Origin: Granulosicoccus antarcticus IMCC3135
Lineage (GTDB): Bacteria; Pseudomonadota; Gammaproteobacteria; Granulosicoccales; Granulosicoccaceae
Assembly: GCF_002215215.1 (NCBI RefSeq)
Contig: NZ_CP018632.1
Span: 3,220,501 to 3,284,500 of the forward strand
Length of the DNA: 64,000 bases
Direction of reading: 5' to 3'
The notes beneath the pieces were generated by a model, which worked only from the letters and a program-made list of their open reading frames with translations, searched no databases and was not told the DNA's origin. Each line of letters opens with the position of its first letter. The first letter of the stretch is position 1. Below are positions 18,143 through 32,280 of the stretch, one piece after another. A program made the translations under genes and the position numbers.

Positions 18143-19029
18143 ACATCAACCGTCGACGATTTCTTGCGATTACCGCCTCATTCACCGCAACGGTCGCTTG
18201 CGCGGCAGAGACACACCGTTGGCAAGGGCGTGCTTTTGGCAGCGATGTCAGTCTGATTATTCGTGGGCCTGAAAAAGCTGCGAATGAGGCAATCAGCGAA
18301 GCGCGATCGCTGATCACGCAAACCGAAAAACTGTTCAGCCTTTACGATCCTGAGTCGGCGTTGGTGTGTCTGAACCAGAACGGCGTGCTCCGCCCACAGG
18401 CGCATTTCCTCAAACTTCTGGAGTCAGTCGATCTGGCCTACCACCTTACTCACGGTTTGTTTGATCCCAGTGTTCAACCCATGTGGCGAAATGCAGTAGA
18501 GGGACGTGATCCGGCTGAAGCCTTGCACTTGGTCGGATGGGAAAAGGTTGAATTCAATGATGCCCGTGTCACCTTGGCACCAGGGCAGGCACTAACGTTC
18601 AACGGTATCGCTCAAGGTTTCGCGACAGACCTTGTATCAGAACGGCTCAAGGCGCTCGGCTTTAACCAAACGCTTGTCAACATTGGCGAGTACAGAGGAG
18701 CAGGCGGTCCGTGGGAATTGGGATTGGCAGATCCGAGATACGGGCTGGTCGACACGCACACCATCCAAAATGCAGCCGTTGCCACCTCGAGCCCGATGGC
18801 AACACCGATCGGGCCTGACGGTCATATATTCCTGCCTGCTGTACATGAAAGGAACGTGAGTCGACCTTGGTCTACCGTGTCTGTTGAAGCAGATACAGCG
18901 ACGCTTGCCGATGCACTTTCCACGGGCCTGGTTTGGGCGAATATGACCTTGATTGAAAAGATCAGAAAATCGCCGGGTGTGCACCGCGTGACGTTGGTTG
19001 ATGAGCACGGCGACCTGCTCAATCTATAA
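18139..19029 (+). CDS. apbE: FAD:protein FMN transferase (ApbE/NosX family)
   Basis: A 296-residue ApbE-type enzyme, which covalently transfers FMN from FAD to a Thr of target flavoproteins in the periplasm. Motifs include EKLFSLYDPESALVCLNQNG (about 55-75), FDPSVQPMW (about 110-118) and NGIAQGFATDLVSERLKALG (about 155-174), followed by LVNIGEYRG. These read closest to the NosX/NirX branch. The TTG at 18139 is proposed as start because it overlaps the NosR-like stop (TTGA). It directly gives a twin-arginine leader, INRRRFLAITASFTATVACAA, as in NosX. Longer upstream starts would read through the NosR gene in another frame. The coupling to a NosR-type flavoprotein makes that protein the obvious substrate. 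Confidence 0.9.
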   Translation: MNINRRRFLAITASFTATVACAAETHRWQGRAFGSDVSLIIRGPEKAANEAISEARSLITQTEKLFSLYDPESALVCLNQNGVLRPQAHFLKLLESVDLAYHLTHGLFDPSVQPMWRNAVEGRDPAEALHLVGWEKVEFNDARVTLAPGQALTFNGIAQGFATDLVSERLKALGFNQTLVNIGEYRGAGGPWELGLADPRYGLVDTHTIQNAAVATSSPMATPIGPDGHIFLPAVHERNVSRPWSTVSVEADTATLADALSTGLVWANMTLIEKIRKSPGVHRVTLVDEHGDLLNL

Positions 19030-20000: not shown

Positions 20001-20657
20001 ATGACCAACCAGGCCGTCCATATCGTTGGAATGCAATTCAGTACTTTCGTGCGTAGTGTGCAGCTGTGCTGTGAGGAGAAGGGCATTCCCTACACAGTAG
20101 GAGCTGAGGTAATTGGTCAGTCCATCAAGCCAGGGTCATCTGAGCGTTTTACTTTGCATCCTTTCGGCAAGATTCCGGTGCTGGTGCACGAAGGTCGGCA
20201 TCTGATCGAGACCCCGAGCATCTGCCGTTATCTGGATGCCGCCTTTGCAGGGCCGGCGCTACAGCCGGAAGAGCCTTGGTTGCGAGCCCAGGTTGATCAG
20301 TGGACTGCCATGCTTGCGCTGTATGTTGATCAAGCGATCGTGCGCAGTTATTTGCTGGAATTCGTGTTTCCCAAAGGTCGCGATGGCACAGTACGTCAAG
20401 AGCTTGTCGATGCTGCCACGCCTGAGTTGATGCGCATACTGGCGCTTCTGGAAGATCAGCTTGCCGAAGGCACTTATCTTGTGGGAGACAGTTTCACCAT
20501 CGCCGATGCGATTGCTGCACCGATGCTGGACTATCTATCAGGATTGCCGGCTGCAGAGAATTTCTTTGTCGAACTACCGCGCCTGGTTGCTTATGTAGGC
20601 AGACTTCGAAAGCGCCCGTCTGCGGCGAAGGTGCTTGTGGCGCCGACGTTTGGATGA
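20001..20657 (+). CDS. Glutathione S-transferase family protein
   Basis: A 218-residue GST. The N-terminal thioredoxin-like domain has the expected strand-helix pattern (VHIVGMQFSTFVRSVQLCCEEKGIPYTV) and the cis-Pro motif KIPVLVHEG with ETPSICRYLD after it (about 56-78). The helical domain carries the N-capping motif DSFTIADAIAAPML (about 165-178). GSTs conjugate glutathione to electrophiles or act as isomerases and dehalogenases. The ATG has AGGAG upstream. The gene is divergent from a TetR regulator and separated from it by an operator-like palindrome, so it is probably induced by the regulator's ligand. A Ser or Cys near residues 14-22 would be the catalytic residue; I cannot decide which. 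Confidence 0.88.
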   Translation: MTNQAVHIVGMQFSTFVRSVQLCCEEKGIPYTVGAEVIGQSIKPGSSERFTLHPFGKIPVLVHEGRHLIETPSICRYLDAAFAGPALQPEEPWLRAQVDQWTAMLALYVDQAIVRSYLLEFVFPKGRDGTVRQELVDAATPELMRILALLEDQLAEGTYLVGDSFTIADAIAAPMLDYLSGLPAAENFFVELPRLVAYVGRLRKRPSAAKVLVAPTFG

Positions 20658-20820
20658 AGTTCATCGGTAAGGGTTTCCGAGTAGGGGGCGATCGGAAAGT
20701 CGCCGACCTGCAAGGTCGAGCTGCGGGCTGGCGCTGTGACCTTCCGGAGTGTGCCCAATTGAGTACGGCGATCTGCTCAATCCAAACCGGTACTGATCGC
20801 AGTTGGGGCGACCTTACCAA

Positions 20821-21900
20821 TCAACCTTTGCCCAGTAGCTTGTTGTATTTTGAGAGAAACAGGTCTTTGCCCTTTAATAGGCTTGTCAGAAAGTCGCCTG
20901 CGACGAAAAGCGAGAGAAAGGAGTTGCCTTTCACAGGCCCAAGCGGGACGAGGATGGGGGCCTTCTGGAAAGGTGTGTAAGGCTTGAGGTCTTCAATTTT
21001 CTGACCGTTTACCAAGGCGGTTAACGTCTTTTTCAACCAGGTAAGCTGGCGCGAGGTAGCAACGATTGTCATGGCATCCCCCATCTCGGCGACATCGCCT
21101 GCGGCGAATACGTTGTCATAGGTGGATGGCCGCATCCAGACATCTGTTTTGATACGCTGGTTTCTACCAAGCTTAGCCTCCGGCAAAGCTTCCAACAGAG
21201 TCGATGTTGCCTTTGAGCCGATGACAGGAAAGATCAGGTCAGCGGCAAGACTTTGTCCCGTGGACAGGATCAGGGTGCCACTATAGGGTTCGGTCAGGCT
21301 CTGCAGGTTTTCGGCGCGTGCCCCGAGAACAAGCACAACTCCGGCATGCTCCAGCTTTGCTGCAAGTTTGCGCCCGAGTTTCTCAGGAAAGTTCGCAAAG
21401 AGTTGCGGCTCACTTGAGATCAAATGCACTTTCTTGTCGGGGTAGCCATGTGCGATTTCACCGGCAAGTTCGGTACCCACTGCACCAGCACCGACAATAG
21501 CAACAGTGCTCGCTGTACTCAGTAGGGCATGAACTCTCGCATTGGCGGCGCGCAATGTTTCAATATCAGCCCCGTTGGATTTGAACGGCACAGCGTTGCT
21601 GGATCCTGTGGCAACAACGATGAAATCCGCCTCAAGCTGTTCGCCTGAAGCCAGTGTGACGCCAGTTTCACTGACGCTCTGTGCCCGGTCTTGAATAAGA
21701 CGACCGTGCTTGAGCAAACCATCGTAGGGAATGAGTGCGCGATCCAGTATGTCAGGATCGACAACGGCTCGAATCATGGCTGGGGCGTGCACGAAATGGC
21801 TATTCTGCTCAATCAGCGTCACTTCGGCCGCATCGTCTAGCGACTTGGCTAATTCAGCGCCTATGTAGCCACCACCGATGATGATGATTCGTTTTTTCAT
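20821..21900 (-). CDS. NDH-2/AIF-like FAD-dependent pyridine nucleotide oxidoreductase
   Basis: A 359-residue flavoprotein with two dinucleotide folds. FAD binds at the N-terminal RIIIIGGGYIGAELAKSL (4-21). NAD(P)H binds at VAIVGAGAVGTELAGEI (about 133-149). ATG-type contact is seen in VVATGS, and the second FAD contact is NVFAAGDVAEMGD (about 265-277). Length and pattern match the small AIF/Nde1-like group of type II NADH dehydrogenases and ferredoxin reductases. The final FLSKYNKLLGKG is basic and amphipathic and could rest on the membrane. It is divergent from a TetR gene with a very long palindrome between, so it is probably repressed by that regulator. The physiological electron acceptor is unknown. 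Confidence 0.85.
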   Translation of the reverse strand: MKKRIIIIGGGYIGAELAKSLDDAAEVTLIEQNSHFVHAPAMIRAVVDPDILDRALIPYDGLLKHGRLIQDRAQSVSETGVTLASGEQLEADFIVVATGSSNAVPFKSNGADIETLRAANARVHALLSTASTVAIVGAGAVGTELAGEIAHGYPDKKVHLISSEPQLFANFPEKLGRKLAAKLEHAGVVLVLGARAENLQSLTEPYSGTLILSTGQSLAADLIFPVIGSKATSTLLEALPEAKLGRNQRIKTDVWMRPSTYDNVFAAGDVAEMGDAMTIVATSRQLTWLKKTLTALVNGQKIEDLKPYTPFQKAPILVPLGPVKGNSFLSLFVAGDFLTSLLKGKDLFLSKYNKLLGKG

Positions 21901-21960
21901 GGAATGTCATGCTTCAATTGTAGGACGAGGTCGCTCTGGAATTCTTGATAAGAAGCGAAT

Positions 21961-21996
21961 CTTGAAATTATGGAACATGTGTTCCATAATTTCAAG
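21961..21996. promoter_or_regulatory. 36-base perfect palindrome between TetR and FAD oxidoreductase genes
   Basis: Arms CTTGAAATTATGGAACA and TGTTCCATAATTTCAAG are exact reverse complements over 17 bases with a 2-base TG spacer. The site lies 61 bases upstream of the oxidoreductase and 37 bases upstream of the TetR start. It is most likely the operator of that TetR protein, controlling both directions. Confidence 0.75.
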
Positions 21997-22032
21997 GGCT
22001 ATTAGATTATTTACAAGGTAGGGAACGTAGAA

Positions 22033-22599
22033 ATGACCGACGCGCGTCAAATACGAACAAAGCAGGCCATTCTGGATACCTTGGACAGCATGTTGTCTGA
22101 AATGCCGTATGGCGATGTCCAGGTGAAAGAGCTTGCAGGCCGTGCCGGAATTGGACGGCAGACGTTTTATCGCCATTTTGACAGTGTTGATGCCGTGATA
22201 TATGAGCGTCTCAGAGCTGATCTTGCCGATCAGATGGCATTCGCTCTTGAACATGTCCAAGCGCATAATCCCGAAGAGTGGCTACTGGAGGTCACAAGGT
22301 TTGCCTTTGAGAAAGTAGCGACCCAACCGCATCTTGCCCGCATCTTGTTGAGCGGTGAAGCCGGTCCTGATGTTCTGCGGCTTTTCCGTGAGCAGATTCT
22401 GGAGCTATGGAGAGTAGGAAAGGCTGACAGTCTGATGGCCTCTGTTGAGCTGGAGCTCAGACCTTTTGCAGCAAGCTTCAAAGCGGGTGCGCTCTGCGGC
22501 ATTCTGCTGCACTGGATAGAAGCCGGATGCTCGCCAGATGCGCGAACGATGAGCCGCTTGTTCCACGATCTGGCCATGCCTGCAACCCAAGGCAGTTGA
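22033..22599 (+). CDS. TetR/AcrR family transcriptional regulator
   Basis: A 188-residue TetR repressor with the DNA-binding domain at about 5-55 (TKQAILDTLDSMLSEMPYGDVQVKELAGRAGIGRQTFYRHF). The C-terminal half looks like the TetR_C family with conserved FKAGALCGILLHWIEAG near 150-166, seen in regulators of small-molecule oxidoreductases. It is divergent from the NDH-2-like gene and faces the 36-base palindrome. Autorepression and repression of the oxidoreductase are the natural expectation. Nothing in the sequence identifies the inducer. Confidence 0.9.
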   Translation: MTDARQIRTKQAILDTLDSMLSEMPYGDVQVKELAGRAGIGRQTFYRHFDSVDAVIYERLRADLADQMAFALEHVQAHNPEEWLLEVTRFAFEKVATQPHLARILLSGEAGPDVLRLFREQILELWRVGKADSLMASVELELRPFAASFKAGALCGILLHWIEAGCSPDARTMSRLFHDLAMPATQGS

Positions 22600-22907
22600 T
22601 GCGATAACACATCTCTCGCTATATCGACTGCTCGATAACCAGGTAGCTGTAGTCGTTGACTGATTTCGATTTAATAATGCAACTGTGGCTGACGTGGAAG
22701 TTTCTTATGGACATCGTATAGGGGAAATTATGCGATGAGAGCAAAACTCCCGCCTTGAAAAGTAATTAGCAATATTGGTATACATTTGTTTGGCAACTCT
22801 CAATCAAACATGTATATTGATTTGAAAATGTATACCAACCCAAGTGACCCTCTAGTGGTTTCAGTGGTTGAGTAGCAATTTCATGGAGAGAGGAGATCAT
22901 CACTATC
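22600..22907. promoter_or_regulatory. Promoter region of the FadL/MpaB operon with three GTATAC-type sites
   Basis: This 308-base region has no gene. Its downstream half holds three operator-like sites. TTGGTATACATTT (22775-22787) is matched by its exact reverse complement AAATGTATACCAA (22826-22838). Between them is a degenerate CATGTATATTGA (centre 22814). The same motif precedes the aldehyde dehydrogenase, the VOC operon and the GntR gene. FCD-type GntR proteins, such as VanR relatives, bind TGTATACA-like palindromes, so the regulator at 31624 is the candidate binder. A ribosome site AGGAG precedes the FadL-like ATG. Confidence 0.65.
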
Positions 22908-23960
22908 ATGCTCAACAGAGAAGCACTCGCGTGCGCGGTCGGAATGTTTATTGTCAGTGGAAATACAGTGGCAGGTGGAATTGACTTAAGTGGTATGAGC
23001 GTGGTCAGGTTGTTTGATCCAGGAACGTTCATTGAAGCGACATATACCGATATCTCGCTGGATATGACGGGTGAAGATGTTGGTGGATTTGAAACAGGGG
23101 ATGTCAAGGATGATTTTTCTGATTTATCTCTGGTGTTCAAACACGATATCAATGAGAAGTATTCGCTTGCGGTGCTGAAAGACACGCCGTTCTATGCTCA
23201 AACAACGCATAAAACGGGTGTGTTTGCCGGGCTCGCTAATAAGGTGGAAACAGAAGGTATTACGGGGCTGCTGCGATACAAGTTTGACAAGAATGTTGCA
23301 GTTCATGGTGGTGTCAGTGCCCATAAGATGGACGCACTGACTGTTGTCCCTGCTGCCTATATTCCACCAGATGGCTATAGGCTTGAATCTGAAGGTGAAG
23401 CAAGTTATGGATATGTTATTGGTGTTACCTATGAAGTGCCTGATTTTCATGCACTTGTCGGACTTACCTATTTTTCAGAAGTTGATAACACACTAAAAGC
23501 CAATGAAAACGGTGTGGATACAGGTGACCTTGAATTGACTACACCTGAGTCTGTGAACCTGGATTTTCGAGTTCCGGTAAGTCCAGGCAATATTATTTTC
23601 GGAGGAATAAGGTGGACTGGCTGGGATGGCTACAAGGTTACTGCACCTTCAGGGTTTGAAGTTGCCAGCGTGACTGAGGATACGGTGACGTATCAGTTGG
23701 GTGCAGCCCACGTGTTTTCACCTGAATTCATAGTGTTTGCCAGAGGTAGCTATGAGGCAGGTCCGAAAGCAGATCAAGATCCTGATAATTTTTACGGCGC
23801 AATAAAACAAGTTGGTGTTGGCTTTGCTTTTACAAAAAGCAAGACTACGGTGACAGGCTTGATAAATCGGGTTACCACCGATGCTAAAACGGGAGCTATT
23901 GGCGAATTTGATGATGGTACCGCCTTGGCGCTGTCACTATCGCTCAAACAAAATTTCTGA
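22908..23960 (+). CDS. FadL/OmpP1-like outer-membrane channel
   Basis: A 350-residue outer-membrane beta-barrel candidate. It has a short signal peptide (about 1-22), many alternating amphipathic strands rich in Gly, Tyr and Thr, and a terminal SLKQNF with the C-terminal Phe typical of barrel proteins. The pattern, including a short N-terminal hatch-like region and strands such as YGYVIGVTYEVPDFHALVGLTY, resembles the FadL/OmpP1/TodX family. That family lets hydrophobic molecules (fatty acids, aromatic hydrocarbons) enter. It heads a two-gene operon with an MpaB/rubber-oxygenase-like enzyme and carries GTATAC operators upstream. That context implies uptake of a lipophilic growth substrate. 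The family call is by pattern; it is shorter than E. coli FadL. Confidence 0.75.
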   Translation: MLNREALACAVGMFIVSGNTVAGGIDLSGMSVVRLFDPGTFIEATYTDISLDMTGEDVGGFETGDVKDDFSDLSLVFKHDINEKYSLAVLKDTPFYAQTTHKTGVFAGLANKVETEGITGLLRYKFDKNVAVHGGVSAHKMDALTVVPAAYIPPDGYRLESEGEASYGYVIGVTYEVPDFHALVGLTYFSEVDNTLKANENGVDTGDLELTTPESVNLDFRVPVSPGNIIFGGIRWTGWDGYKVTAPSGFEVASVTEDTVTYQLGAAHVFSPEFIVFARGSYEAGPKADQDPDNFYGAIKQVGVGFAFTKSKTTVTGLINRVTTDAKTGAIGEFDDGTALALSLSLKQNF

Positions 23961-23985
23961 TGGTCTGTTATTTAGCTGATCAAGG

Positions 23986-24000
23986 TACGCCACTGGCGTA
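23986..24000 (+). terminator. Small hairpin between FadL-like and MpaB-like genes
   Basis: TACGCC-act-GGCGTA followed by GAAATATTTT forms a 6-base stem with a 3-base loop and a broken T-run. It is weak and could attenuate transcription into the downstream oxygenase gene. I include it as a possible partial terminator only. Confidence 0.3.
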
Positions 24001-24092
24001 GAAATATTTTGAACATGTAAGTGCTTGTGCACGGGTTCAGAGCTCAAGCCTCTTATGACATGTATTGGAACTATATTTAGAGAGAGTTGTTA

Positions 24093-25400
24093 ATGAAGTT
24101 ACTTACTGAAAAAAATCTGGAAGCAGAAATTGCGATAGATAAAAAAATGTTGACCTTGGCTGAGGGTAGAACAACTCCTCCCGAAGATATGACCATTGCG
24201 CCTTTTGATGGTAATCCGAATAAGGAACAAGCGGCTTCCATTATCAAGCTTTTGTTCGGTGTTGTTCCCAAGTATGACCCTGAGCTTTCAAAGAGGCTTT
24301 GTATGTCGAATTGGACAGGCGATCCATTGTCAGATGTCGCAATCCTCAAGATTCGTCGCAGGGGAGACGAGCCGCACCAGATCATCGAGCAATTTCTGGA
24401 GGGCGGAATTGATGCCGTTGAGAACCCACCGCCAGAGCTGGAAGCGATTTGGAAAGATGTGTCAGAAGATCCCGAGTGGTTGGATTGGGACAAGTTAGAG
24501 TTGGGAGCAAAAGCCTATCGGGGCTACGGTGTTTATGGATTTCAATTCCAGGGCATCGCTACTTTGGACGGTTATCGTAGTCGTAATATTGCACGCACTC
24601 TGATGTCTACGGGGCAGTATTCAGATGAGACTGCTTTCAAACGCTTCTTGTTGACTTGTAACTTCTGGACTGAAGTCTCCGAGACAGGTGGTATGCGCAC
24701 CTTCGGCGATGGTTGGAAGGTAGCGCTGCGTGTGCGTCTGCTTCATACGTTGATTCGTCGAGCGGTTTTTAGTAGTGAGCGTTGGGAGCCTGACGTCTTT
24801 GGCATGCCAATAAATCAGTTAGGGTTGTTAGGTGCGCCCGTCATTAGCTCACTGGTGATGGGCGTCTCTTCTCGTAAGCTCGGTTGGAAGCTAAGCGACG
24901 AAGAGATAGAAGGGATAATGCACCTGTGGCGCTATGTTTCACATGTCATGGGCTATGACAATAGTGTCGTGCCATTTCCTGAAACGATTGAAGAAGGCCG
25001 CCATCTTTTCTACCAATTATTGCTTCAGACCAAGTTGTCAGATGACCCGGATGGTATTCGTTTGTGTAAATCATTCATGGATTGTTTTGAGCCACCCAAG
25101 GAGTTCAAGGGGCTTGAAAAATTCAAGCGTTGGTGGGAGTACAAGGCGAACCTTGCCATGACTCTGCTATTTGTAAGCCCGGAGACGCGCAAGGTTGCCG
25201 AGATTCGAGCAGGAAAATTCTGGGGTATTGTTTATTTCATCATAACAGTACCCATGAATATCATTCGTTCCAAGCGAAGGCTGAAAAATCCTGCGTATGC
25301 AGAAAAGCTGGATAAGAAGATCAGCAAGGAAAGGCGAGAGTGGGTTGAAAAGCAGCTTGGTGAAGCAGATCTTGTCTACCGTCCAAAGTCGAAATACTAA
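24093..25400 (+). CDS. MpaB/rubber oxygenase (Lcp)-like DUF2236 family protein
   Basis: A 435-residue protein of the DUF2236 family, which includes latex-clearing protein (a heme b dioxygenase cleaving polyisoprene) and fungal MpaB (cleaving the farnesyl chain of a mycophenolic acid precursor). Family features are the GVYGFQFQGIATLDGYRSRN segment (about 145-165), TGGMRTFGDGWKVALRVRLLHTLIRR (about 195-220) with a His that matches the heme-ligand position of the family (R..LLH), and INQLGLLGAPVISSLVMG. The ATG at 24093 has AGAGAG upstream and is better than a TTG six bases earlier. No signal peptide is seen, so it would act inside the cell, like MpaB-type members. It follows a FadL-like gene under GTATAC control. 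Oxidative C=C cleavage of an isoprenoid-like compound is the inferred role. Confidence 0.72.
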   Translation: MKLLTEKNLEAEIAIDKKMLTLAEGRTTPPEDMTIAPFDGNPNKEQAASIIKLLFGVVPKYDPELSKRLCMSNWTGDPLSDVAILKIRRRGDEPHQIIEQFLEGGIDAVENPPPELEAIWKDVSEDPEWLDWDKLELGAKAYRGYGVYGFQFQGIATLDGYRSRNIARTLMSTGQYSDETAFKRFLLTCNFWTEVSETGGMRTFGDGWKVALRVRLLHTLIRRAVFSSERWEPDVFGMPINQLGLLGAPVISSLVMGVSSRKLGWKLSDEEIEGIMHLWRYVSHVMGYDNSVVPFPETIEEGRHLFYQLLLQTKLSDDPDGIRLCKSFMDCFEPPKEFKGLEKFKRWWEYKANLAMTLLFVSPETRKVAEIRAGKFWGIVYFIITVPMNIIRSKRRLKNPAYAEKLDKKISKERREWVEKQLGEADLVYRPKSKY

Positions 25401-25458
25401 AAAACAGCGATAAAAATGGTCTAAGGGTTCATGAAATAGTTAATTGTTTCACGAGCTA

Positions 25459-25500
25459 CTAGTAGTCCAACCGGAAAATATCTTCCGGTTGGACTGCTAG
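25459..25500. repeat. 18-bp inverted repeat (stable hairpin)
   Basis: Left arm CTAGTAGTCCAACCGGAA and right arm TTCCGGTTGGACTGCTAG pair over 18 positions with one T.G wobble and a 6-base loop (AATATC). There is no T-run after either arm, so it is not a standard terminator. It may protect the 3' end of one of the two convergent transcripts or bind a protein. Confidence 0.7.
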
Positions 25501-25564
25501 GTACAATCATCTATTGATATCGCAGTATCGGCACATTTAGAGAAAGCCCTTCTGGAGGAAGTTC

Positions 25565-25591
25565 AAGGTCGCGCAGGTTGCGACCTTTTTT
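25565..25591 (+). terminator. Intrinsic terminator after the MpaB-like gene
   Basis: AAGGTCGC-gcaggtt-GCGACCTT followed by a run of six T bases in total (GCGACCTTTTTT) is a good Rho-independent terminator on the plus strand. It closes the FadL/MpaB transcript about 165 bases after the stop codon. Confidence 0.8.
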
Positions 25592-25683
25592 GGATAAAAT
25601 ACAAAGGGGTAAAACGAAGCCGTTGATTATTGAATACATCAACAGCTGATGATGCCACTAGTGGGTGAGGGTCGGTCGGCCTG

Positions 25684-27207
25684 CTAGTGAGGGTTGATTC
25701 TCGTTACTACCGATTTTGTTTCCAGATATCCACCCAGGCCTTCTGCTCCAAGGTCCCGACCAATACCCGACTGTCGGAATCCGCCCAGTGTCATCGCTGC
25801 AGGTGGAACAGGGCCTGTATTGACAAACACAGTGCCTGTGCGCAAGTCACGAATAGCCGATTGGATTTTACCGTGATCAGAGCCGAACAGGAAAGAGCAC
25901 AGACCAAAGTCAGCTGCGTTGGTTTCTTCAATCACTTCATTGATATCTTCATAGGTTTCAATGGTTATCACAGGGCCAAATATTTCTTCTTTCAGCAAAG
26001 GACTATCTTTGGGAAGGTCTGTGATCACAGTAGGCTGGATGTAATATCCATTGCTTTTCAATGCTTCACCACCGGCGATGACGCGGCCCTGAGCGGCGCC
26101 TTTTTGAATGTAGTTCATGACACGGTCGAATTGTGCTTTCGAGCAGACTGGGCCAATTACGCTGCCTTCTACAAGTGCAGGGCCAACCGGTAGTGCTTCT
26201 GCAAATGTCTTTAATGATTGAGCAAGACGTTCTGCCACAGAAACATGGGCAACTACCTTCGAACCGGACACGCATATTTGCCCCGCGTTAGGGAACGTCG
26301 ACATTGCGATCGCTGGAGTGATTGCTTCTATATCGGCATCTTCCATCACGATCATCGGGTTTTTGCCGCCAAGCTCAAGACTTAAGCGAACCAGGCGCTC
26401 TGCACCTGCTCTATAGATATGCTTGCCAACTTCGCATGAGCCAGTGAAAGCGAATTTGTCAACATCCTTATTGTTCAGTAAAGACTGGCCAGCGCTTTCT
26501 CCACGACCCGTGACAATGTTCAGGACACCGGCTGGGAAGCCCACTTGACGTGCAAGCTCGATGACGCGAAGTGTGGCCAGGCAGGCATCTTCTGCTGGTT
26601 TTAGGACCATTGTGCAGCCAGCGGCCAGTGCTGGTGCTATTTTCCAGCTGGTTACCATGACAGGGGCATTCCAGGGTGTGATGGCGCCTACAACGCCAAC
26701 AGGTTCTTTGCTTGTGTAGGCAAAGAATTCACCGCCAGTTTTATAATCAGGGCTCAGGTCAATGGTTTCGCCTTTTATTTTTGTGGCAAAACCGGCGTAA
26801 TAGCGGAACGTTTCAATGGCCTTGGGTATTTCGAATCCGCTGGCGATAGCCTTGGTGGTGCCCAGATCTGCAGCAATCAGATCGCTAAGAACATCCGTGT
26901 CAGCTTCGATGGCGTCTGCGAGTTTCAAGATCAGATTCTGACGTTTATCCGGACCGCATCGACGCCATTCGCTGCCTGTTGCAAAAGCGGCTTTTGCCGC
27001 GGCTACTGCGCGGTCAACATCGCTTTTGGTCGAGTCTATGATTTGCCCGATGATCGTGCCGCTTGATGGGTCTACAACGTCGAGGAAGTCGTTGCCGTCT
27101 GATCCTTGCCAGGTTCCATTGATAAACAGACCAGGCTTGCTCTGGATAAAGTCGCGCGCCTCTTTTGAGCACAGCTCGAGTGAAGATGGTGCAGTAAGAA
27201 TATTCAT
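25684..27207 (-). CDS. Aldehyde dehydrogenase family protein
   Basis: A 507-residue NAD(P)-dependent aldehyde dehydrogenase. The fold landmarks are all present: PWNAPVMVTSWKIAPALAAG (about 175-195), the cofactor turn FTGSCEVGKHI (about 253), the general-base Glu in SLELGGKNP (about 277), and the catalytic Cys312 in NAGQICVSGSK. The C-terminal GGFRQSGIGRDLGAEGLGGYLETKSV is typical. It has its own promoter region with two GTATAC sites. By family it oxidises an aldehyde to a carboxylate (or acyl-CoA). Given the MpaB/Lcp-like oxygenase in the same apparent regulon, an aldehyde released by oxidative chain cleavage is the likely substrate. That link is inference. Confidence 0.92.
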   Translation of the reverse strand: MNILTAPSSLELCSKEARDFIQSKPGLFINGTWQGSDGNDFLDVVDPSSGTIIGQIIDSTKSDVDRAVAAAKAAFATGSEWRRCGPDKRQNLILKLADAIEADTDVLSDLIAADLGTTKAIASGFEIPKAIETFRYYAGFATKIKGETIDLSPDYKTGGEFFAYTSKEPVGVVGAITPWNAPVMVTSWKIAPALAAGCTMVLKPAEDACLATLRVIELARQVGFPAGVLNIVTGRGESAGQSLLNNKDVDKFAFTGSCEVGKHIYRAGAERLVRLSLELGGKNPMIVMEDADIEAITPAIAMSTFPNAGQICVSGSKVVAHVSVAERLAQSLKTFAEALPVGPALVEGSVIGPVCSKAQFDRVMNYIQKGAAQGRVIAGGEALKSNGYYIQPTVITDLPKDSPLLKEEIFGPVITIETYEDINEVIEETNAADFGLCSFLFGSDHGKIQSAIRDLRTGTVFVNTGPVPPAAMTLGGFRQSGIGRDLGAEGLGGYLETKSVVTRINPH

Positions 27208-27485
27208 TATTTTCTCAAAAAATGGATGACTGATTTCTTTGCCGCAGATTTTTCCTAGTGCTTCCTCCTGAAAAACACTTGGAAATCTGTAGTGGTATAC
27301 AATTAATCAGTTTCTATGTTCCAAGTCAATAGTCAAGACGAAAAATGTATACATTGTTGGTTGCATGTTACAACTAGATTCCGAATATCCAGACTCAGTC
27401 ATTCAGGCAATACGAATACATCGATACACCAGTATTAATACAAGTAGTAGCAGAAGCGCGTAGAAAACCCGAGACCTGGCAAGTC
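27208..27485. promoter_or_regulatory. Aldehyde dehydrogenase promoter region with two GTATAC sites
   Basis: This 278-base region has no gene. It carries TGGTATACAA (centre 27297) and a perfect 12-base palindrome AATGTATACATT at 27344-27355, both facing the divergent-strand aldehyde dehydrogenase start. These match the sites upstream of the FadL-like, VOC and GntR genes and mark this gene as a regulon member. The part next to the lyase gene shows nothing notable. Confidence 0.65.
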
Positions 27486-28406
27486 TCAAAGCAAAGGTAG
27501 TTTGCCCCTCGGTACCGTTCGCAGATGTCCTCCCATACTCGTGCCGGGAAGCTCTGCGATGCGATCAGCAACTTCAAGCAACGCTGCCAGGTCGACGGCA
27601 CACCCTGCATTGGAACCCCGTGCGGCAAACACCAGGTCCTCGGTCGCGGTGTTTCCGGTTGCGCCCGGGGCAAAGGGACACCCGCCCAGACCACCGGCGC
27701 TGGTGTCGATCACAGCCACGCCCGCGCGGTTGGCTGCCATGGCATTGGCAATGCCCATTCCATAAGTGTCATGCCCATGAAACGCCCAGGTGTTGTTACT
27801 CAGAGCCTCCATGGTCATGACTTTTTGAAAACGCTCGGCGACTTCAAAGGGGTTGGCTCGACCGGTGGTATCGCAAAGTGCAATTTCGGAGGTGGGTGCA
27901 AGCTGGGCTATGTGCTCGAGAGCATGCAGCACAGCATCCATCGGAACAGTTCCATCGAAGGGGCAATCAAAAGCTGTCGCAAGATCGACACGCAGAGCGA
28001 TGTCTGCACCTGAGATGGCTTGGCAGACATCCGCAAGGCCCTGGATCGACTGAGAGATCGGGGCGCCTACATTCGACAGGTTATGCGCTTCTGAGGCTGA
28101 AAACACATAGACAATCTCTTGGACACCGTTTTTCAAGGCCAGCTCTGCACCCCTGACATTGGGTACCAGCGCTGCAAGACGCGCTCGAGTGTCAGTACGG
28201 AAATGCTGCGCGATTTCGATCATATCGACCATCTGCGGTATGGCTCGCGGACTGACAAACGAGCCGAATTCGATACGTGTGAGGCCTGCTGCAATCAGAG
28301 CCTCAATGATCTGAATCTTGATGCCGGTGGCGATAGGTTCGTTGATGGATTGAAAGCCATCTCGCGGTGCGACCTCAACAATCTCGATGGGTGTTGTCTG
28401 TATCAC
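27486..28406 (-). CDS. HMG-CoA lyase-like enzyme
   Basis: A 306-residue member of the hydroxymethylglutaryl-CoA lyase (DRE-TIM) family. The N-terminal VEVAPRDGFQSINEPI carries the metal/catalytic Arg-Asp, HGHDTYGMGIAN carries the metal-binding His pair, and GGLGGCPFAPGATGNTATEDL contains the catalytic Cys signature. Family enzymes split 3-hydroxy-3-methylacyl-CoA esters to acetyl-CoA plus a keto acid. It starts at a GTG that shares one base with the stop of the upstream CoA-transferase gene. The pairing suggests that the transferase makes its CoA ester. The acceptor could be HMG itself, citramalate or a longer branched hydroxy-acid. This is the last gene of the VOC-hydrolase-transferase-lyase operon. 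Confidence 0.88.
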   Translation of the reverse strand: MIQTTPIEIVEVAPRDGFQSINEPIATGIKIQIIEALIAAGLTRIEFGSFVSPRAIPQMVDMIEIAQHFRTDTRARLAALVPNVRGAELALKNGVQEIVYVFSASEAHNLSNVGAPISQSIQGLADVCQAISGADIALRVDLATAFDCPFDGTVPMDAVLHALEHIAQLAPTSEIALCDTTGRANPFEVAERFQKVMTMEALSNNTWAFHGHDTYGMGIANAMAANRAGVAVIDTSAGGLGGCPFAPGATGNTATEDLVFAARGSNAGCAVDLAALLEVADRIAELPGTSMGGHLRTVPRGKLPLL

Positions 28407-29599
28407 TAGATAGTGCCACTTTCACGTAGTAAGTCCACCTGTTGGTCCGATAAGCCAAGTAGGTTGGTCAGGGTCTCGACTGTATGCTCTCCCAGTGTTG
28501 GTCCGGTGTGGCGGATTTGTCCTGTGGTGTCGTTCAGGCGAGGGAAAACGTTTTGCATCGCAATCTTGTCGCCCTGTGCGTCGGCGACATGGATGATGCT
28601 CTCGCGTTCCTGGTAATGCGGATCGGCCAGCATTTCCACGGCGGTAAATTCCAATCCAACAGGAACGCCGGCATCGCTCAGTATCTTTACGACCTCTTCA
28701 GCTGTGTGGGTCTGTGTCCATTGGCCGATGATGTCATCGAGTTCTTCGGCATTGGCACCGCGTGAGCGGTGACTGTCGAATCTTGGATCTGTGGCCAGTT
28801 CGGGTTGGTCCATGGCAGTACACATGCGTTTGTATACGGTGTCCTGGTTGGCCCCGATGATCACATCGCGTTCATTACTACAGGGGTAGGCATTGGAAGG
28901 GGCGATGCCGGGCAGGGAGGGTCCTGTGCGCGATCGGATATGTCCGCCGCGATCATATTCGGCAACGATGGCTTCGGTCATGGCAAGTGAGGACTCGTAG
29001 ATCGAACTGTCGACGATTTGTCCCCTGCCGGTCACATGACGGGCCTGAAGGGCCAGAAGCGCCCCCATGGCGCCGAAGACACCAGCTAGTGAGTCGCCGA
29101 TGGAAATGCCCGAACGTACCGATGGTCTGTCGGGGTAGCCAGCGATGTGCCGCAACCCTCCCATGGCTTCGCAAACCGAGGCAAAGCCGGCTCGTTCTGC
29201 ATAGGGGCCTGTTTGACCAAAGCCAGAGATGCGCACCATGATCAGTCTGGGGTTGATTCTCGACAGTTCTTCATAGCTCAATCCCCAGCGCTCCATGGTG
29301 CCGGGGCGGAAATTTTCGATCAGTACATCGGCGTCTGCGACGAGCTGTTTCAGGATGTCCTGTCCTGCAGCCAGTCTCAGGTTCAGGGTCACAGACTTTT
29401 TATTGCGCGCAATGACTGACCACCAGATAGGTTTGCCATTGTCATCTGAGCGGCCCCATTCGCGCATCGCGTCACCGGTTTTCGGAGGCTCGATCTTCAG
29501 AACTTCTGCACCATTGTCAGCCAGTAGCTGACCGCAAAAAGGCCCGGCAATCAGTTGGCCGAGTTCGAGAACGCGAATGCCATCAAGAGCTCCGTTCAT
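28406..29599 (-). CDS. Family III (CaiB/BaiF) CoA-transferase
   Basis: A 397-residue family III CoA-transferase. The N-terminus GIRVLELGQLIAGPFCGQLLADNGAEVLKIEPP is the family fingerprint, and the catalytic Asp169 (GISIGDS) stands at the same number as in formyl-CoA transferase. NKKSVTLNL and the FRPGTMERWGL stretch are also typical. These dimers move CoA between two carboxylic acids. Human SUGCT of this family uses succinyl-CoA with glutarate or hydroxymethylglutarate. Here the coupled downstream gene is HMG-CoA-lyase-like, so activation of a 3-hydroxy-3-methyl dicarboxylate is a good hypothesis. The start lies one base after the stop of the alpha/beta hydrolase gene. Confidence 0.9.
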   Translation of the reverse strand: MNGALDGIRVLELGQLIAGPFCGQLLADNGAEVLKIEPPKTGDAMREWGRSDDNGKPIWWSVIARNKKSVTLNLRLAAGQDILKQLVADADVLIENFRPGTMERWGLSYEELSRINPRLIMVRISGFGQTGPYAERAGFASVCEAMGGLRHIAGYPDRPSVRSGISIGDSLAGVFGAMGALLALQARHVTGRGQIVDSSIYESSLAMTEAIVAEYDRGGHIRSRTGPSLPGIAPSNAYPCSNERDVIIGANQDTVYKRMCTAMDQPELATDPRFDSHRSRGANAEELDDIIGQWTQTHTAEEVVKILSDAGVPVGLEFTAVEMLADPHYQERESIIHVADAQGDKIAMQNVFPRLNDTTGQIRHTGPTLGEHTVETLTNLLGLSDQQVDLLRESGTI

Positions 29600-29600
29600 G

Positions 29601-30779
29601 TCATGTGACCTTTTGTTGTGTCCAATGGGTGATTAGCGCAACCACCTGGTTTTGTTGTTCGGGCTGTTCTCGGTAGTAATGCGTAGCCTTGTCGATCCGG
29701 CAATATTGCTTGTCTGTCGAGCCGGCCGCGTTGAACACTCGTTCCAGGTGTGCCACAGGAACGCAGTCATCAGCGGTATTTTCGATCACCAGGAGCGGGC
29801 AGCTGATATTCACGACGCATGCTTCGGCATCGGCGCGCGAGTGATCAAGCGACCACTGCGACATCCAGGCCCGCAGAGTCGAGAATCGTGCCAGGCCAAC
29901 GGGCCCGGTATTGACGGTTTCAGGTAGGCCCAGGTAGCACCAGTCCGCTTGTCGATCATTCGGCTCTAGTGAGGCGTCCAGAAAGCGCGGATCGGCCATG
30001 GTTCGATGAACGATAAAGGGGCGTTCCTGGCCGTTGCCTTTAGAGCTTTTCAACCGTTCCAGATGCGCTTGCACGGTCGCTGTAATCTTATTGCTACGGG
30101 CTTGTTGGCGTGCGCGGAACTGTGCGATGAATTCGTCGCTGAACGGAGGTTTGGGCCCATTCACGGCATATAGGTCAAATGCCGTGTCGCGATTCTCTGG
30201 CTCATCTTCATCAATGACGGATGGGTCGATCCATTCACTGAGAATGTGTGCGCGGCCAATGTGTGCCGCAACAAACAAAGCGGCATTCGCCACCGGCAAA
30301 TCAGCGCGGGCAAGATCATAAGGATCGCCCGCGGGCGTATGTGTGATGGTTGGATTTTCCGCCTGGCTCTGGTAGAACATCGCCAGCGAACCACCGCCGC
30401 TCCAGCCGCACAGTACAACCTTGGAATAGCCCAGAACATCTCGAGCGTGGCGGATATAGGCCCCAAGGTCCACAGCAACCTTCTCCATGATCAGAGCAGT
30501 GTCATTCTTGGCATAGCGAGAGCCGCAGCAAAGCACGTGGTGGCCTGCCTCTGCCAGTGCCACAGGCAGAGGCATGAGGTTCAACGTGGAGGCCGGGTGC
30601 ATGAATACAAAAACCGTGTCCGATGGTAGATTTTCTGGAAGGATCTGCTGGCCTTCCAGAAATACCCGGCCCTGGCTTCCCGTGAACCCATAGGTCTCGG
30701 TGAAGGCGGCGGTTTCAACAAAGGACACGATGACCGGTATGCGTACAATCTGGTGAAGCTCGGGCGTATGGGGGCTCAT
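29601..30779 (-). CDS. Alpha/beta hydrolase
   Basis: A 392-residue alpha/beta hydrolase. The nucleophile elbow GWSGGG places Ser127. VFVFMHPASTLNLMPLPVALAEAG (about 56-79) is the usual first strand and oxyanion region. ENTADDCVP (about 340) and KATHYY (about 370) provide the acid and His of the triad. Length and the insertion between strand 6 and the acid suggest a lid domain. The ATG at 30779 is favoured: GAAGG lies about 10 bases upstream and the previous gene's stop is 13 bases away. A longer reading frame back to 30914 would overlap the VOC gene deeply. It could cleave an ester, lactone or C-C bond. The substrate is unknown. Confidence 0.82.
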   Translation of the reverse strand: MSPHTPELHQIVRIPVIVSFVETAAFTETYGFTGSQGRVFLEGQQILPENLPSDTVFVFMHPASTLNLMPLPVALAEAGHHVLCCGSRYAKNDTALIMEKVAVDLGAYIRHARDVLGYSKVVLCGWSGGGSLAMFYQSQAENPTITHTPAGDPYDLARADLPVANAALFVAAHIGRAHILSEWIDPSVIDEDEPENRDTAFDLYAVNGPKPPFSDEFIAQFRARQQARSNKITATVQAHLERLKSSKGNGQERPFIVHRTMADPRFLDASLEPNDRQADWCYLGLPETVNTGPVGLARFSTLRAWMSQWSLDHSRADAEACVVNISCPLLVIENTADDCVPVAHLERVFNAAGSTDKQYCRIDKATHYYREQPEQQNQVVALITHWTQQKVT

Positions 30780-30792
30780 GTCAGGCATGCCT

Positions 30793-31320
30793 TCAGGCTT
30801 TCTCTGTCTTGAAGGCGGCGACATCTGGCGCACGTTTGGTCTTGTCCCACTCTTCAAGCAGTGGTTGTGCCTGGATGAGAAGTGCTTCAGCCATTTCCGG
30901 GATGATGGTATCAACTGTCAATTCCATGCGGTGACCGTTCGGATCGAAGAAGTAGATCGACTGGCAAACCTTGTGATCCGTAGGGCCAACAACATCGACG
31001 CCTCCGGCGATCAGACGTTTTTTTGCTGTAACAAGCGATTCCATATCAGGTACTTTCAGCGCAAGATGTTGCACCCAGTCGGGTGTGTTCTGATCGAGCT
31101 CCATCTCTGGCGATTCGGGTAGCTCGAAAAAGGCAAGGTAGGAGCCGTCCTGCATTTTAAGAAAGATGTGGACATGCGGTGACCATTCCCCGGTTGAGGG
31201 GACCTTGTTCTCAGCAATGGCGATGGTCAGATCGAGATTCAGGTACTGCTTGTAGAACTCGGCGGTGAGTTTGGCATTCCGGCAGCGGTATGCAACGTGA
31301 TGAAGTCCCTGGACGTTCAT
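30793..31320 (-). CDS. VOC (glyoxalase/extradiol dioxygenase) superfamily protein
   Basis: A 175-residue single VOC unit pair. The metal-binding positions of the fold appear as LHHVAYRC (6-13), LAFFELPESP (Glu near 66), WVQHLALKV (His near 84) and HRMELT (Glu near 135). The superfamily includes glyoxalases, epimerases, ring-cleaving dioxygenases and resistance proteins, so the chemistry is open. The start ATG has AGGA eight bases upstream. It opens the minus-strand operon hydrolase-CoA-transferase-lyase and faces the GntR regulator across a region with several GTATAC sites. An epimerase or isomerase step on a CoA or keto intermediate, or an O2-dependent cleavage, would all fit. Confidence 0.8.
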   Translation of the reverse strand: MNVQGLHHVAYRCRNAKLTAEFYKQYLNLDLTIAIAENKVPSTGEWSPHVHIFLKMQDGSYLAFFELPESPEMELDQNTPDWVQHLALKVPDMESLVTAKKRLIAGGVDVVGPTDHKVCQSIYFFDPNGHRMELTVDTIIPEMAEALLIQAQPLLEEWDKTKRAPDVAAFKTEKA

Positions 31321-31623
31321 GACTTTCTTCCTCTCAACGATGGGTGGGTATGGTTCTTGGTATACATTCTAACCTGTTTTTTTCAATAATTGGTTCGTTG
31401 AGGTTCATTTTAGGGGTATATGGTGAGTCCATTATATTAAATGTATACTTTAATTCTCGGACAAGGTGGTACAGCCCGGAATTCGATGCCGGTTGTTTAG
31501 TTCGAAACCTTGATTGGTGGTTTACAATATTTGTCATAAGTGCCCCATAAGTGAAATTGATGGACATTCATGGGGTTGAGGTGTTTACGGATATAATATT
31601 ATGTATACATTCAATATCAGATC
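31321..31623. promoter_or_regulatory. Divergent control region with three GTATAC sites
   Basis: No gene lies in these 303 bases between the VOC operon and the GntR gene. Sites: TTGGTATACATTC (31357-31369) near the VOC start, AAATGTATACTTT (31439-31451) in the middle, and the perfect palindrome ATGTATACAT (31601-31610) just 14 bases before the regulator ATG. The last would block or tune the regulator's own expression. The region is A/T-rich, with a TATAAT-like box at 31592-31597. Confidence 0.7.
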
Positions 31624-32280
31624 ATGACGTTAGCAGAGCAAGCAACAGATCGCCTCAAGCATGCCCTTTTGTCCGGGGAGATATCTGGCGGTAAAGCCAT
31701 GACAGAGCGCAACGTTTGCGAGTATCTGGGCATGTCGCGCACCCCGGTAAGAGCAGCCTTACAGGCCCTTGCTGCGGAAGGCGTGTTGACGTATCAGGCG
31801 CAGCGTGGCTACCAGATGCGTGAGTTCGATAAACAAGCTGTGCTGGATGCTTATCAGGTGCGTGCCGTGCTGGAAGGGCAGGCATGTCGGGAGATTGCCA
31901 TGTGTGGGCTCTCGGAGAGCACTCAGGAGACCTTGTTGGCCTGCGTGGTAAAGGGTAAAAAGCTCCTGGCAGAGGACCGGAAATCGTTTGTGCATGAGCA
32001 CTGGCGTGAAATGAACAGTTGCTTCCATCATGCATTGCTTGATGCTTTGAGCAACGAGACGTTGAAAGAGATGCTTTTGCATATCGAGAAACGCCCGATG
32101 CTCTCTTTTCAGGTGATTGCAAAGCTGGGGGTAAAACCGGATTTCAGCCTACTGAGTGTTGCCCAGACCGACCATGAGCGTGTCCTGAAATATCTGCAAG
32201 CGGGTGATGCCGAGCGCGCCTCAAACGCCATGGTCGAGCATGTGAGGGTGGCGGGCGATCTTTTACTCGAAGGTTGGTAA
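31624..32280 (+). CDS. GntR family regulator, FCD subfamily
   Basis: A 218-residue regulator. The winged helix-turn-helix lies at about 5-70 (LKHALLSGEISGGKAMTERNVCEYLGMSRTPVRAALQALAAEGVL). An all-helical FCD ligand domain follows (about 80-215), with metal-ligand type residues such as the His pair in CFHHALLDAL (about 141) and the later HERVL and VEHVR. FCD regulators usually repress catabolic genes for organic acids, sugar acids or aromatic acids and release DNA on ligand binding. A TGTATACA palindrome lies directly before its start, and the same motif precedes three other transcription units from 22.8 to 31.4 kb. It is therefore the likely master regulator of this locus. Confidence 0.9.
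   Translation: MTLAEQATDRLKHALLSGEISGGKAMTERNVCEYLGMSRTPVRAALQALAAEGVLTYQAQRGYQMREFDKQAVLDAYQVRAVLEGQACREIAMCGLSESTQETLLACVVKGKKLLAEDRKSFVHEHWREMNSCFHHALLDALSNETLKEMLLHIEKRPMLSFQVIAKLGVKPDFSLLSVAQTDHERVLKYLQAGDAERASNAMVEHVRVAGDLLLEGW

What the first reader, a model, noticed from the sequence alone, without database searches (positions are those of the whole stretch)
22600..32280. Possible undescribed GntR-controlled regulon for uptake and oxidative cleavage of a hydrophobic, perhaps isoprenoid, compound
Seen: a FadL-like channel, a DUF2236 (MpaB/latex-clearing-like) protein, an aldehyde dehydrogenase, and a coupled operon of VOC protein, alpha/beta hydrolase, family III CoA-transferase and HMG-CoA-lyase-like enzyme lie within 10 kb with an FCD regulator. 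All four transcription units carry the same GTATAC operator. Known: DUF2236 enzymes cut isoprenoid C=C bonds to carbonyl products; ALDH makes acids; SUGCT-type transferases and HMG-CoA lyases process 3-hydroxy-3-methyl acids, which is what branched isoprenoid residues yield. Inference: import, C=C cleavage, aldehyde oxidation, CoA transfer and lyase cleavage form one new pathway.
Basis: partly seen in the sequence, partly recalled or inferred. Interest (0 to 1): 0.85.

Follow-up and report, generated by a model that had tools for sequence, protein, structure and literature searches.

The report
Probable prenyl-hydroquinone degradation gene island
A marine bacterium carries a jointly regulated gene island that probably takes up an oily ring compound with an unsaturated tail, cuts the tail off and then opens the ring for food; in one other genome the tail-cutting and ring-opening genes sit in a row.

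Summary
FadL, MpaB/Lcp oxygenase, ALDH, VOC, alpha/beta hydrolase (ABH), CaiB, HMG-CoA-lyase-like and FCD genes lie where stated, with seven GTATAC sites in their promoters (7 of 20 genome-wide matches in about 0.1% of the genome).

The interpretation needs changing. The VOC protein is 48% identical to a solved homogentisate 1,2-dioxygenase. Of 21 plasmid loci examined that carry its relatives, 11 have a fumarylacetoacetase-type or maleylacetoacetate isomerase gene nearby, 9 the ABH, 1 neither, none both. In an uncultured gammaproteobacterium the order is ALDH–MpaB–VOC–FahA–MaiA. All four ALDHs beside MpaB match phenylacetaldehyde dehydrogenase best, below its cut-off.

Best reading: MpaB cuts the first side-chain C=C of an alkenyl (prenyl-type) hydroquinone, ALDH makes a homogentisate-type acid, VOC opens the ring, ABH hydrolyses the product, and CaiB plus lyase finish a diacid. 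Reactions and substrate are inferred. Only one of five other MpaB loci has VOC, and none has the lyase. Unexcluded rivals: a purely isoprenoid route, or two pathways sharing a regulator. My searches of an open-licence library listed no paper on this linkage.

The parts
20821..21900 (-). FSP1/AIFM2-like FAD reductase (quinone reduction inferred); possible accessory, no GTATAC operator
   Evidence: phmmer against PDB: FSP1 (tetrapod ancestor) E 1.2e-31, AIFM2 7.7e-27; a 43% identical homologue directly follows MpaB in Trinickia locus L052
22778..22835 (.). Two GTATAC sites 52 bp apart on either side of the fadL promoter-like match
   Evidence: promoter-like match TTGGCA-17-TATATT at 22790-22818
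22908..23960 (+). FadL/TodX-family outer-membrane channel, 350 aa
   Evidence: PF03349 E 9.9e-8, 31.3 bits against cut-off 29.7
24093..25400 (+). MpaB/Lcp-type oxygenase (DUF2236), proposed to cut the side-chain C=C; no obvious signal peptide by eye
   Evidence: PF09995 E 2.2e-10; Lcp is the only PDB family matched significantly by sequence profile and by fold; Lcp active-site R164, T168, H198 align with invariant R184, T188, H218
25684..27207 (-). Aldehyde dehydrogenase, nearest to phenylacetaldehyde dehydrogenases
   Evidence: Aldedh E 1.4e-151; best NCBIfam StyD 463.9 bits, below cut-off 850; best PDB 4o5h phenylacetaldehyde dehydrogenase E 6.9e-122
27295..27352 (.). Two GTATAC sites 52 bp apart before the ALDH gene
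27486..28406 (-). HMG-CoA-lyase-like acyl-CoA lyase
   Evidence: NF004283 HMG-CoA lyase subfamily 270.4 bits against cut-off 246; PDB HMG-CoA lyases down to E 1.8e-55
28406..29599 (-). Family III (CaiB/BaiF) CoA-transferase, substrate open
   Evidence: PF02515 E 2.4e-124; below the cut-off of all 7 NCBIfam families matched
29601..30788 (-). Alpha/beta hydrolase (395 aa), proposed to hydrolyse the ring-fission product in place of fumarylacetoacetase
   Evidence: 6273 relatives at E <= 0.001 among 7998 candidates scored; stands beside VOC where FahA stands elsewhere; serine nucleophile motif GWSGG read by eye
30793..31320 (-). VOC-fold protein, proposed ring-cleavage dioxygenase of homogentisate type
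   Evidence: 48% identical to PDB 9u42, titled Homogentisate 1,2-Dioxygenase from Acinetobacter
31360..31448 (.). Two GTATAC sites 83 bp apart before the VOC operon
31603..31608 (.). GTATAC site just upstream of the FCD regulator gene (autoregulation inferred)
31624..32280 (+). GntR-family FCD regulator proposed to bind the GTATAC sites
   Evidence: PF07729 E 3.5e-14 and PF00392 E 6.9e-14; binding not tested

Best explanation
A probably acquired, FCD/GntR-controlled catabolic island for a hydrophobic hydroquinone or benzoquinone with an alkenyl (prenyl-type) side chain. Proposed route: FadL takes the compound in; an FSP1-like reductase may keep it as hydroquinone; MpaB splits the first side-chain double bond, Ar-CH2-CH=C(CH3)R, into the arylacetaldehyde Ar-CH2-CHO and a ketone; ALDH oxidises the aldehyde to a homogentisate-type acid (2,5-dihydroxyphenylacetate or a ring-methylated form); VOC cleaves the ring; ABH, a non-homologous stand-in for fumarylacetoacetase, hydrolyses the C-C bond of the product; CaiB and the HMGL-like lyase turn the resulting diacid (a branched one such as citramalate if the ring carried a methyl group) into acetyl-CoA and a keto acid. 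Shown: families, active-site residues, shared operator-like sites, and recurrence of ALDH-MpaB, VOC-ABH and ABH-CaiB-HMGL in other genomes. Inferred: every reaction, the order of steps, the regulator-site link and the substrate.
For: Locus L051 (uncultured gammaproteobacterial MAG) has ALDH-MpaB-VOC-FahA-MaiA in one direction, 14-55 bases between ORFs as called; its FahA and MaiA pass curated NCBIfam equivalog cut-offs; a FadL-family gene and two CoA-transferase subunits lie upstream in other units. VOC matches a solved homogentisate dioxygenase. Plasmid VOC loci examined, 14 fetched through VOC and 7 through ABH: FAH-type or MaiA within about 6 kb in 11 of 21, ABH in 9 of 21, neither in 1, both in 0; 4-hydroxyphenylpyruvate dioxygenase adjacent in 3 (several loci are near-identical pairs). 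ABH-chosen plasmid loci: VOC in 7 of 13, FahA-type in 0 of 13, CaiB plus HMGL in 3 of 13, LeuC-LeuD as well in 2 of 13. All 4 ALDHs beside MpaB (window, L050, L051, L052) score best against phenylacetaldehyde dehydrogenase. The FSP1-like reductase directly follows MpaB in L052. The own genome also has a canonical HgmA, so VOC is not needed for ordinary homogentisate. Leucothrix sargassi has MpaB (75%) and VOC (72%) each on a contig of 587,707 bp, very probably the same one.
Against: Only one other locus (L051) shows MpaB and VOC in one operon; 4 of 5 other MpaB loci lack VOC, and the two Rhodobacterales loci have an AMP ligase-enoyl-CoA hydratase-SDR-TRAP-transporter context with no ALDH match. 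HMGL and CaiB were not found beside MpaB elsewhere (0 of 5). The ALDHs are below the StyD cut-off and the family is broad. No hydratase (LeuCD) is near the island among the genes examined, although the genome has others. fadL/MpaB (45.5-47% GC) and HMGL-CaiB-ABH (56% GC) differ in composition, so the two halves may have arrived separately. ABH as a C-C hydrolase rests on neighbourhood alone, and in 2 of 4 chromosomal ABH loci (L075, L077) a FAH-type gene lies within about 7 kb as well, so the two are not strictly exclusive. FahA- and ABH-partnered VOCs do not sort cleanly in the tree (L102/L109 group with L070). The free-living seawater origin of the recalled source species (PMC9238374) does not point to algae.
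Confidence: 0.5

Rival explanations
1. Two pathways under one regulator or merely adjacent: FadL-MpaB-ALDH act on an unrelated hydrophobic alkene, and VOC-ABH-CaiB-HMGL on a homogentisate-like acid from another source.
For: ALDH-MpaB without VOC in L050 and L052, whose genomes have no VOC match at E <= 0.001; ABH-CaiB-HMGL without MpaB in L067-L069; different GC of the two halves.
Against: Shared operator-like sites and the L051 operon that joins ALDH-MpaB to VOC-FahA-MaiA.
Confidence: 0.25
2. One reading: an isoprenoid (terpene, squalene, carotenoid or polyisoprene) is cut by MpaB, and HMGL and CaiB handle 3-hydroxy-3-methyl acids from the chain; VOC and ABH are accessory.
For: Lcp and MpaB cut isoprenoid C=C bonds (PMC5522427, PMC12724181, passages); the lyase passes the HMG-CoA lyase subfamily cut-off.
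Against: VOC is of homogentisate-dioxygenase type; MpaB plus HMGL not seen elsewhere (0 of 5); HMGL-CaiB travel with ABH, VOC and LeuCD in two related Sphingobium plasmid clusters without MpaB.
Confidence: 0.12
3. The substrate is an aryl alkene without isoprenoid nature (allyl- or alkenyl-phenol or hydroquinone); otherwise as in the best explanation.
For: A passage in PMC12724181 cites Purwani et al. for bacterial haem oxygenases that cleave alkene double bonds; the ALDH resembles phenylacetaldehyde dehydrogenase.
Against: FadL/OmpW channels and the FSP1-like reductase suggest larger, lipid-like substrates (inference); no direct test.
Confidence: 0.13

Closest known systems
Homogentisate lower pathway (HgmA, MaiA, FahA)
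   Same: VOC matches a solved VOC-fold homogentisate 1,2-dioxygenase (9u42), and relatives stand beside FahA-type or MaiA genes in 11 of the 21 plasmid VOC loci examined
   Different: In the window ABH stands in place of FahA, no MaiA is beside it, CaiB and HMGL are added, and MpaB-ALDH take the place of 4-hydroxyphenylpyruvate dioxygenase as the proposed source of the arylacetate
Latex clearing protein (Lcp) and fungal MpaB
   Same: PF09995, Lcp fold (only significant PDB match), invariant R/T/H of the haem site
   Different: Distal Lys167 is Leu here; no obvious signal peptide by eye; catabolic context; bacterial clade of 23 relatives at 41-75% identity among the candidates scored
Styrene lower pathway (StyD phenylacetaldehyde dehydrogenase)
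   Same: An alkene oxidised to an arylacetaldehyde and then to an arylacetate (proposed)
   Different: No styrene monooxygenase or isomerase among the genes of the island; all four ALDHs below the StyD cut-off
CaiB-HMGL-LeuCD-VOC-ABH clusters of Sphingobium sp. TKS pTK2 and MI1205 pMI1
   Same: All four operon families present: ABH 58-59%, HMGL 47%, CaiB 40-41%, VOC 39% identity
   Different: No MpaB; includes LeuCD, P450 and thiolase; LuxR-type regulator

Membership tests
MPAB_Lcp (PF09995) haem oxygenases | Family profile above gathering score | tested here: met
   41.4 bits against 23
MPAB_Lcp (PF09995) haem oxygenases | Proximal His198 with active-site Arg164 and Thr168 of LcpK30 | tested here: met
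   H218, R184 and T188 are invariant in 22 sequences and align with them; residue roles from passages of PMC5522427
MPAB_Lcp (PF09995) haem oxygenases | Distal Lys167 | tested here: not met
   Leu187 at that place; the paper gives Lys167 as conserved in 59% of Lcps, so not defining
MPAB_Lcp (PF09995) haem oxygenases | Lcp fold | tested here: met
   pLDDT 88.9; 5o1l/5o1m chains the only PDB matches with E <= 0.001, TM 0.55-0.70
MPAB_Lcp (PF09995) haem oxygenases | Haem b and C=C cleavage | not testable with these tools
   needs protein
VOC-fold homogentisate 1,2-dioxygenase (9u42 type) | Full-length similarity to the solved enzyme | tested here: met
   E 1.2e-54, 48% identity over 170 columns; the predicted model used has only pLDDT 76.8
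VOC-fold homogentisate 1,2-dioxygenase (9u42 type) | His/His/Glu metal site (VOC ligand pattern recalled) | tested here: met
   H7, H8, H85, Y123 and E133 invariant in 26 sequences and shared with 9u42
VOC-fold homogentisate 1,2-dioxygenase (9u42 type) | Groups with FahA-partnered members in a tree | tested here: inconclusive
   The window protein falls with Leucothrix and metagenome relatives, next to a FahA-partnered clade, with modest support; partners do not sort cleanly overall
VOC-fold homogentisate 1,2-dioxygenase (9u42 type) | Homogentisate ring cleavage | not testable with these tools
   needs assay
Fumarylacetoacetase (FahA) | FAA_hydrolase domain | tested here: not met
   ABH has only weak alpha/beta-hydrolase matches; it may work like FahA but is not one
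HMG-CoA lyase (NF004283 subfamily) | Curated cut-off | tested here: met
   270.4 against 246; substrate not determined
SUGCT-type CoA-transferase (NF052585) | Curated cut-off | tested here: not met
   263.3 against 750
Phenylacetaldehyde dehydrogenase StyD (NF045735) | Curated cut-off | tested here: not met
   463.9 against 850, though it is the best-scoring family
FSP1/AIFM2 quinone reductase | Full-length similarity to FSP1 structures | tested here: inconclusive
   E 1.2e-31 over nearly full length; quinone reduction untested and no GTATAC site at the gene

The most novel reading that the evidence does not exclude
A complete bacterial pathway for mineralising prenylated quinones or hydroquinones of algae (plastoquinol, tocotrienols, tetraprenyl-toluquinols): an MpaB-type haem oxygenase clips the prenyl chain next to the ring and so makes (methyl)homogentisate, which enters a homogentisate-type lower pathway. 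In the ring-methylated variant a new C-C hydrolase family replaces fumarylacetoacetase, and CaiB plus an HMGL-type citramalyl-CoA lyase finish the methylated diacid.
Probability: 0.3. Interest if true: 0.82.

Novelty: new variant of a known kind. Interest (0 to 1): 0.62.

Why it matters
Prenylated quinones and hydroquinones are made by plants and algae (general knowledge), yet the listings of my searches (and the 20 of 73 papers shown) showed no bacterial route for degrading them; the library holds open-licence papers only. The proposed route would link a double-bond-cutting haem oxygenase to homogentisate-type ring opening, give a role to a large alpha/beta-hydrolase family as a fumarylacetoacetase substitute, and yield direct single-enzyme tests.

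Tried and rejected
Considered: rubber degradation, disfavoured because MpaB shows no obvious signal peptide by eye and sits beside FadL. A regulon reaching other genome sites: the only other paired GTATAC site lies between what I read as malonyl-CoA-decarboxylase-like and thiolase genes (L016/L104; no family search was run on them); noted but not claimed. LeuCD under the same regulator: two extra aconitase-type loci lie 4.5-5 kb from operator-like sites, too far to claim. The GST gene at 20001-20657 as a maleylacetoacetate isomerase: no NCBIfam match at 1e-20 and 20% identity to the L051 MaiA. Distant MpaB homologues (27-30% identity) as a control: 0 of 5 loci had any partner gene at E <= 1e-6. 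MpaB in relatives: of the 35 other same-genus or same-family genomes one had a match, at 25% identity; 2 further genomes of 369 in the class sample at E <= 1e-40, later seen to be 27-30% identical; only the carrier itself among 348 genomes of the Pseudomonas carrier's family (E <= 1e-60) and 398 of the Trinickia carrier's (E <= 1e-70); 3 of 390 in the MAG's order, the carrier included. ABH: 0 of 56 other relatives at E <= 1e-40. Second contig-length coincidence (MpaB P0008 and VOC P0161, both 9,395 bp): could be chance, not used. That the source genome is Granulosicoccus antarcticus is my recall from its size; no call names it.
A bias to know: the 14 VOC loci fetched through VOC (of 35 records, 30 listed) were picked by me and left out records already seen through ABH, so counts for those 14 alone (FAH-type 10, MaiA only 1, ABH 2, neither 1) understate ABH; hence the combined 21. 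Near-identical pairs among them: L096/L106, L101/L108, L102/L109, L107/L111, L067/L068.


Full report
What is there. Four transcription units are inferred: fadL-MpaB (22908-25400, +), ALDH (25684-27207, -), VOC-ABH-CaiB-HMGL (27486-31320, -) and the FCD regulator (31624-32280, +). GTATAC occurs 12 times in the window (4.49 expected; 0 of 100 shuffles reached 12). Seven sites are in the promoter regions of these units and one lies inside the CaiB gene. Two pairs have the same spacing, 52 bp, and the fadL pair lies on either side of a promoter-like match. Genome-wide, 7 of 20 matches to GTATACAWTY fall here (the pattern was drawn from these sites). These seven lie outside the ORFs my script selected, whereas 11 of the other 13 lie inside one. 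Binding by the FCD protein is inferred.

The oxygenase. The MpaB protein passes the PF09995 cut-off. Lcp is the only PDB family matched by its profile at a significant E-value (calmodulins follow at E 0.16 and above) and the only fold match with E <= 0.001. LcpK30 His198, Arg164 and Thr168, called crucial in passages of PMC5522427, align with residues invariant in 22 relatives; distal Lys167 is Leu. The close clade is small (23 relatives at 41-75% identity among the candidates scored) and sporadic: among the 35 other genomes of the genus and family only a 25% match was found, and ABH is absent at E <= 1e-40 from the 56 other relatives searched. The island was probably acquired, perhaps in two parts, since GC is 45.5-47% for fadL/MpaB and 56% for HMGL-CaiB-ABH, against 53.4% for the window.

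Neighbours of MpaB elsewhere. Four loci came from GTDB genomes and one from a plasmid. ALDH (48-55% identical to the window's) directly precedes MpaB in 3 of 5 (L050, L051, L052). A FadL-family gene is in L050 and L051 and OmpW in L052. L050 has FMO-like flavoprotein and Abhydrolase_3 genes before the ALDH; read as Baeyer-Villiger monooxygenase and esterase (my inference) they would suit the ketone product. L052 has an FSP1-like reductase homologous to the one at 20821-21900 of the window (43%). L051 continues MpaB-VOC-FahA-MaiA, with FahA and MaiA above curated cut-offs; two CoA-transferase subunits and the FadL-family gene lie upstream in other units. The two Rhodobacterales loci (L049, L053, with the same gene row) have an AMP ligase, enoyl-CoA hydratase, SDR, TRAP transporter and thiolase instead. 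None of the 5 has HMGL or CaiB in the DNA held. Of 5 loci of distant MpaB homologues (27-30%), none had a partner gene, so the association belongs to the close clade.

The VOC protein and the ABH. The VOC protein is 48% identical to 9u42, titled Crystal Structure of Homogentisate 1,2-Dioxygenase from Acinetobacter. A search for that entry code found no paper; the listings (1 and 5 papers) showed none that treats a VOC-fold homogentisate dioxygenase. I examined 21 plasmid loci with a VOC relative: 14 fetched through VOC (of 35 records) and 7 of the 13 fetched through ABH (of 38 records). A FahA/FAH-type gene lies within about 6 kb in 10, MaiA alone in 1, ABH in 9, neither in 1, and FAH-type plus ABH in none; 4-hydroxyphenylpyruvate dioxygenase is adjacent in 3. 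Several are near-identical pairs, and I picked the 14 by hand. Among the 13 ABH-chosen loci VOC is present in 7 and FahA-type in 0; CaiB plus HMGL in 3, with LeuCD too in 2. A Rhodococcus plasmid has a cupin protein (28% to an HgmA-like protein) directly before ABH (L073). ABH as a substitute for fumarylacetoacetase is an inference from position only. A tree puts the window VOC next to a FahA-partnered clade that holds the Acinetobacter relatives, but FahA- and ABH-partnered proteins mix elsewhere in it. The genome has a canonical HgmA elsewhere.

Mechanism. Cutting Ar-CH2-CH=C(CH3)R next to the ring yields an arylacetaldehyde, and all four ALDHs beside MpaB match phenylacetaldehyde dehydrogenase best, though below its cut-off. 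Oxidation gives a homogentisate-type acid, the substrate type of VOC. With an unmethylated ring the L051 set (FahA, MaiA, CoA-transferase) suffices. With a ring methyl group hydrolysis would give methyl-maleate or mesaconate, for which a hydratase (LeuCD in the Sphingobium clusters), a CoA-transferase and an HMG-CoA-lyase-like citramalyl-CoA lyase are a natural finish; this last part is reasoned chemistry with no test here, and no hydratase is in the island. Candidate substrates are plastoquinol, tocotrienols and brown-algal toluquinols. Leucothrix sargassi, by its name from Sargassum (recalled), has MpaB and VOC each on a 587,707-bp contig, very probably the same. The probable genus Granulosicoccus (recalled) is the most abundant kelp-blade bacterium in PMC9238374 (passages); the same passages call the type strain of G. 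antarcticus free-living and say isolates came from seawater, seagrass and kelp.

Literature. Listings (20 of 131 papers; 20 of 73; 12 of 1,545) and 118 were seen; passages of PMC5522427, PMC12724181, PMC4708987 and PMC9238374. None of the listings shows an MpaB-to-homogentisate route. The library holds open-licence papers only.

Verdict. The clustered operator-like sites are real as sequence; the most probable function is the degradation of an alkenyl hydroquinone through a homogentisate-type acid (0.5). Single enzymes are of known kinds; the combination is new as far as searched.

Noticed in passing
window 29601-30788 and relatives L070, L082, L085, L101, L108: The ABH family (6273 relatives at E <= 0.001 among 7998 candidates scored) pairs with VOC proteins where others have fumarylacetoacetase; a possible non-homologous replacement worth testing on its own.
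   Followed up: partly
L104 6467-6620 (genome 4,392,514): Only other paired GTATAC site, between genes read by eye as malonyl-CoA-decarboxylase-like and thiolase; could be a distant member of the regulon or the site of another FCD protein.
   Followed up: partly
L103 11940-14107 and L104 10918-12942: Two aconitase/LeuCD-type gene pairs besides the one at 6.02 Mb (L105); possible hydratases for a methylated diacid, 4.5-5 kb from operator-like sites.
   Followed up: partly
window 20001-22599: GST, FSP1-like reductase and TetR genes just upstream of the island, without GTATAC sites.
   Followed up: partly
L049 6509-14692 and L053 8606-16772: A conserved AMP ligase-enoyl-CoA hydratase-SDR-MpaB-TRAP gene row in two Rhodobacterales, one on a Sulfitobacter plasmid; a different use of the same MpaB clade.
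   Followed up: partly
L050 5477-8371: Abhydrolase_3 and FMO-like genes directly before ALDH-MpaB-FadL in Pseudomonas sp. RGM2987; read as esterase and Baeyer-Villiger-type monooxygenase they would fit processing of the methyl ketone left by C=C cleavage.
   Followed up: no
L043, L045 and L046: A CaiB-HMGL pair (with an FCD-type regulator in L043 and L046, and an isochorismatase-like gene beside CaiB in L043 and L045) without MpaB, VOC or ABH matches in relatives of the source genome.
   Followed up: partly
window 15929-19029: A 737-aa Fer4_5 protein and an ApbE-family protein side by side, resembling nitrous-oxide-reduction accessory genes (recalled).
   Followed up: no
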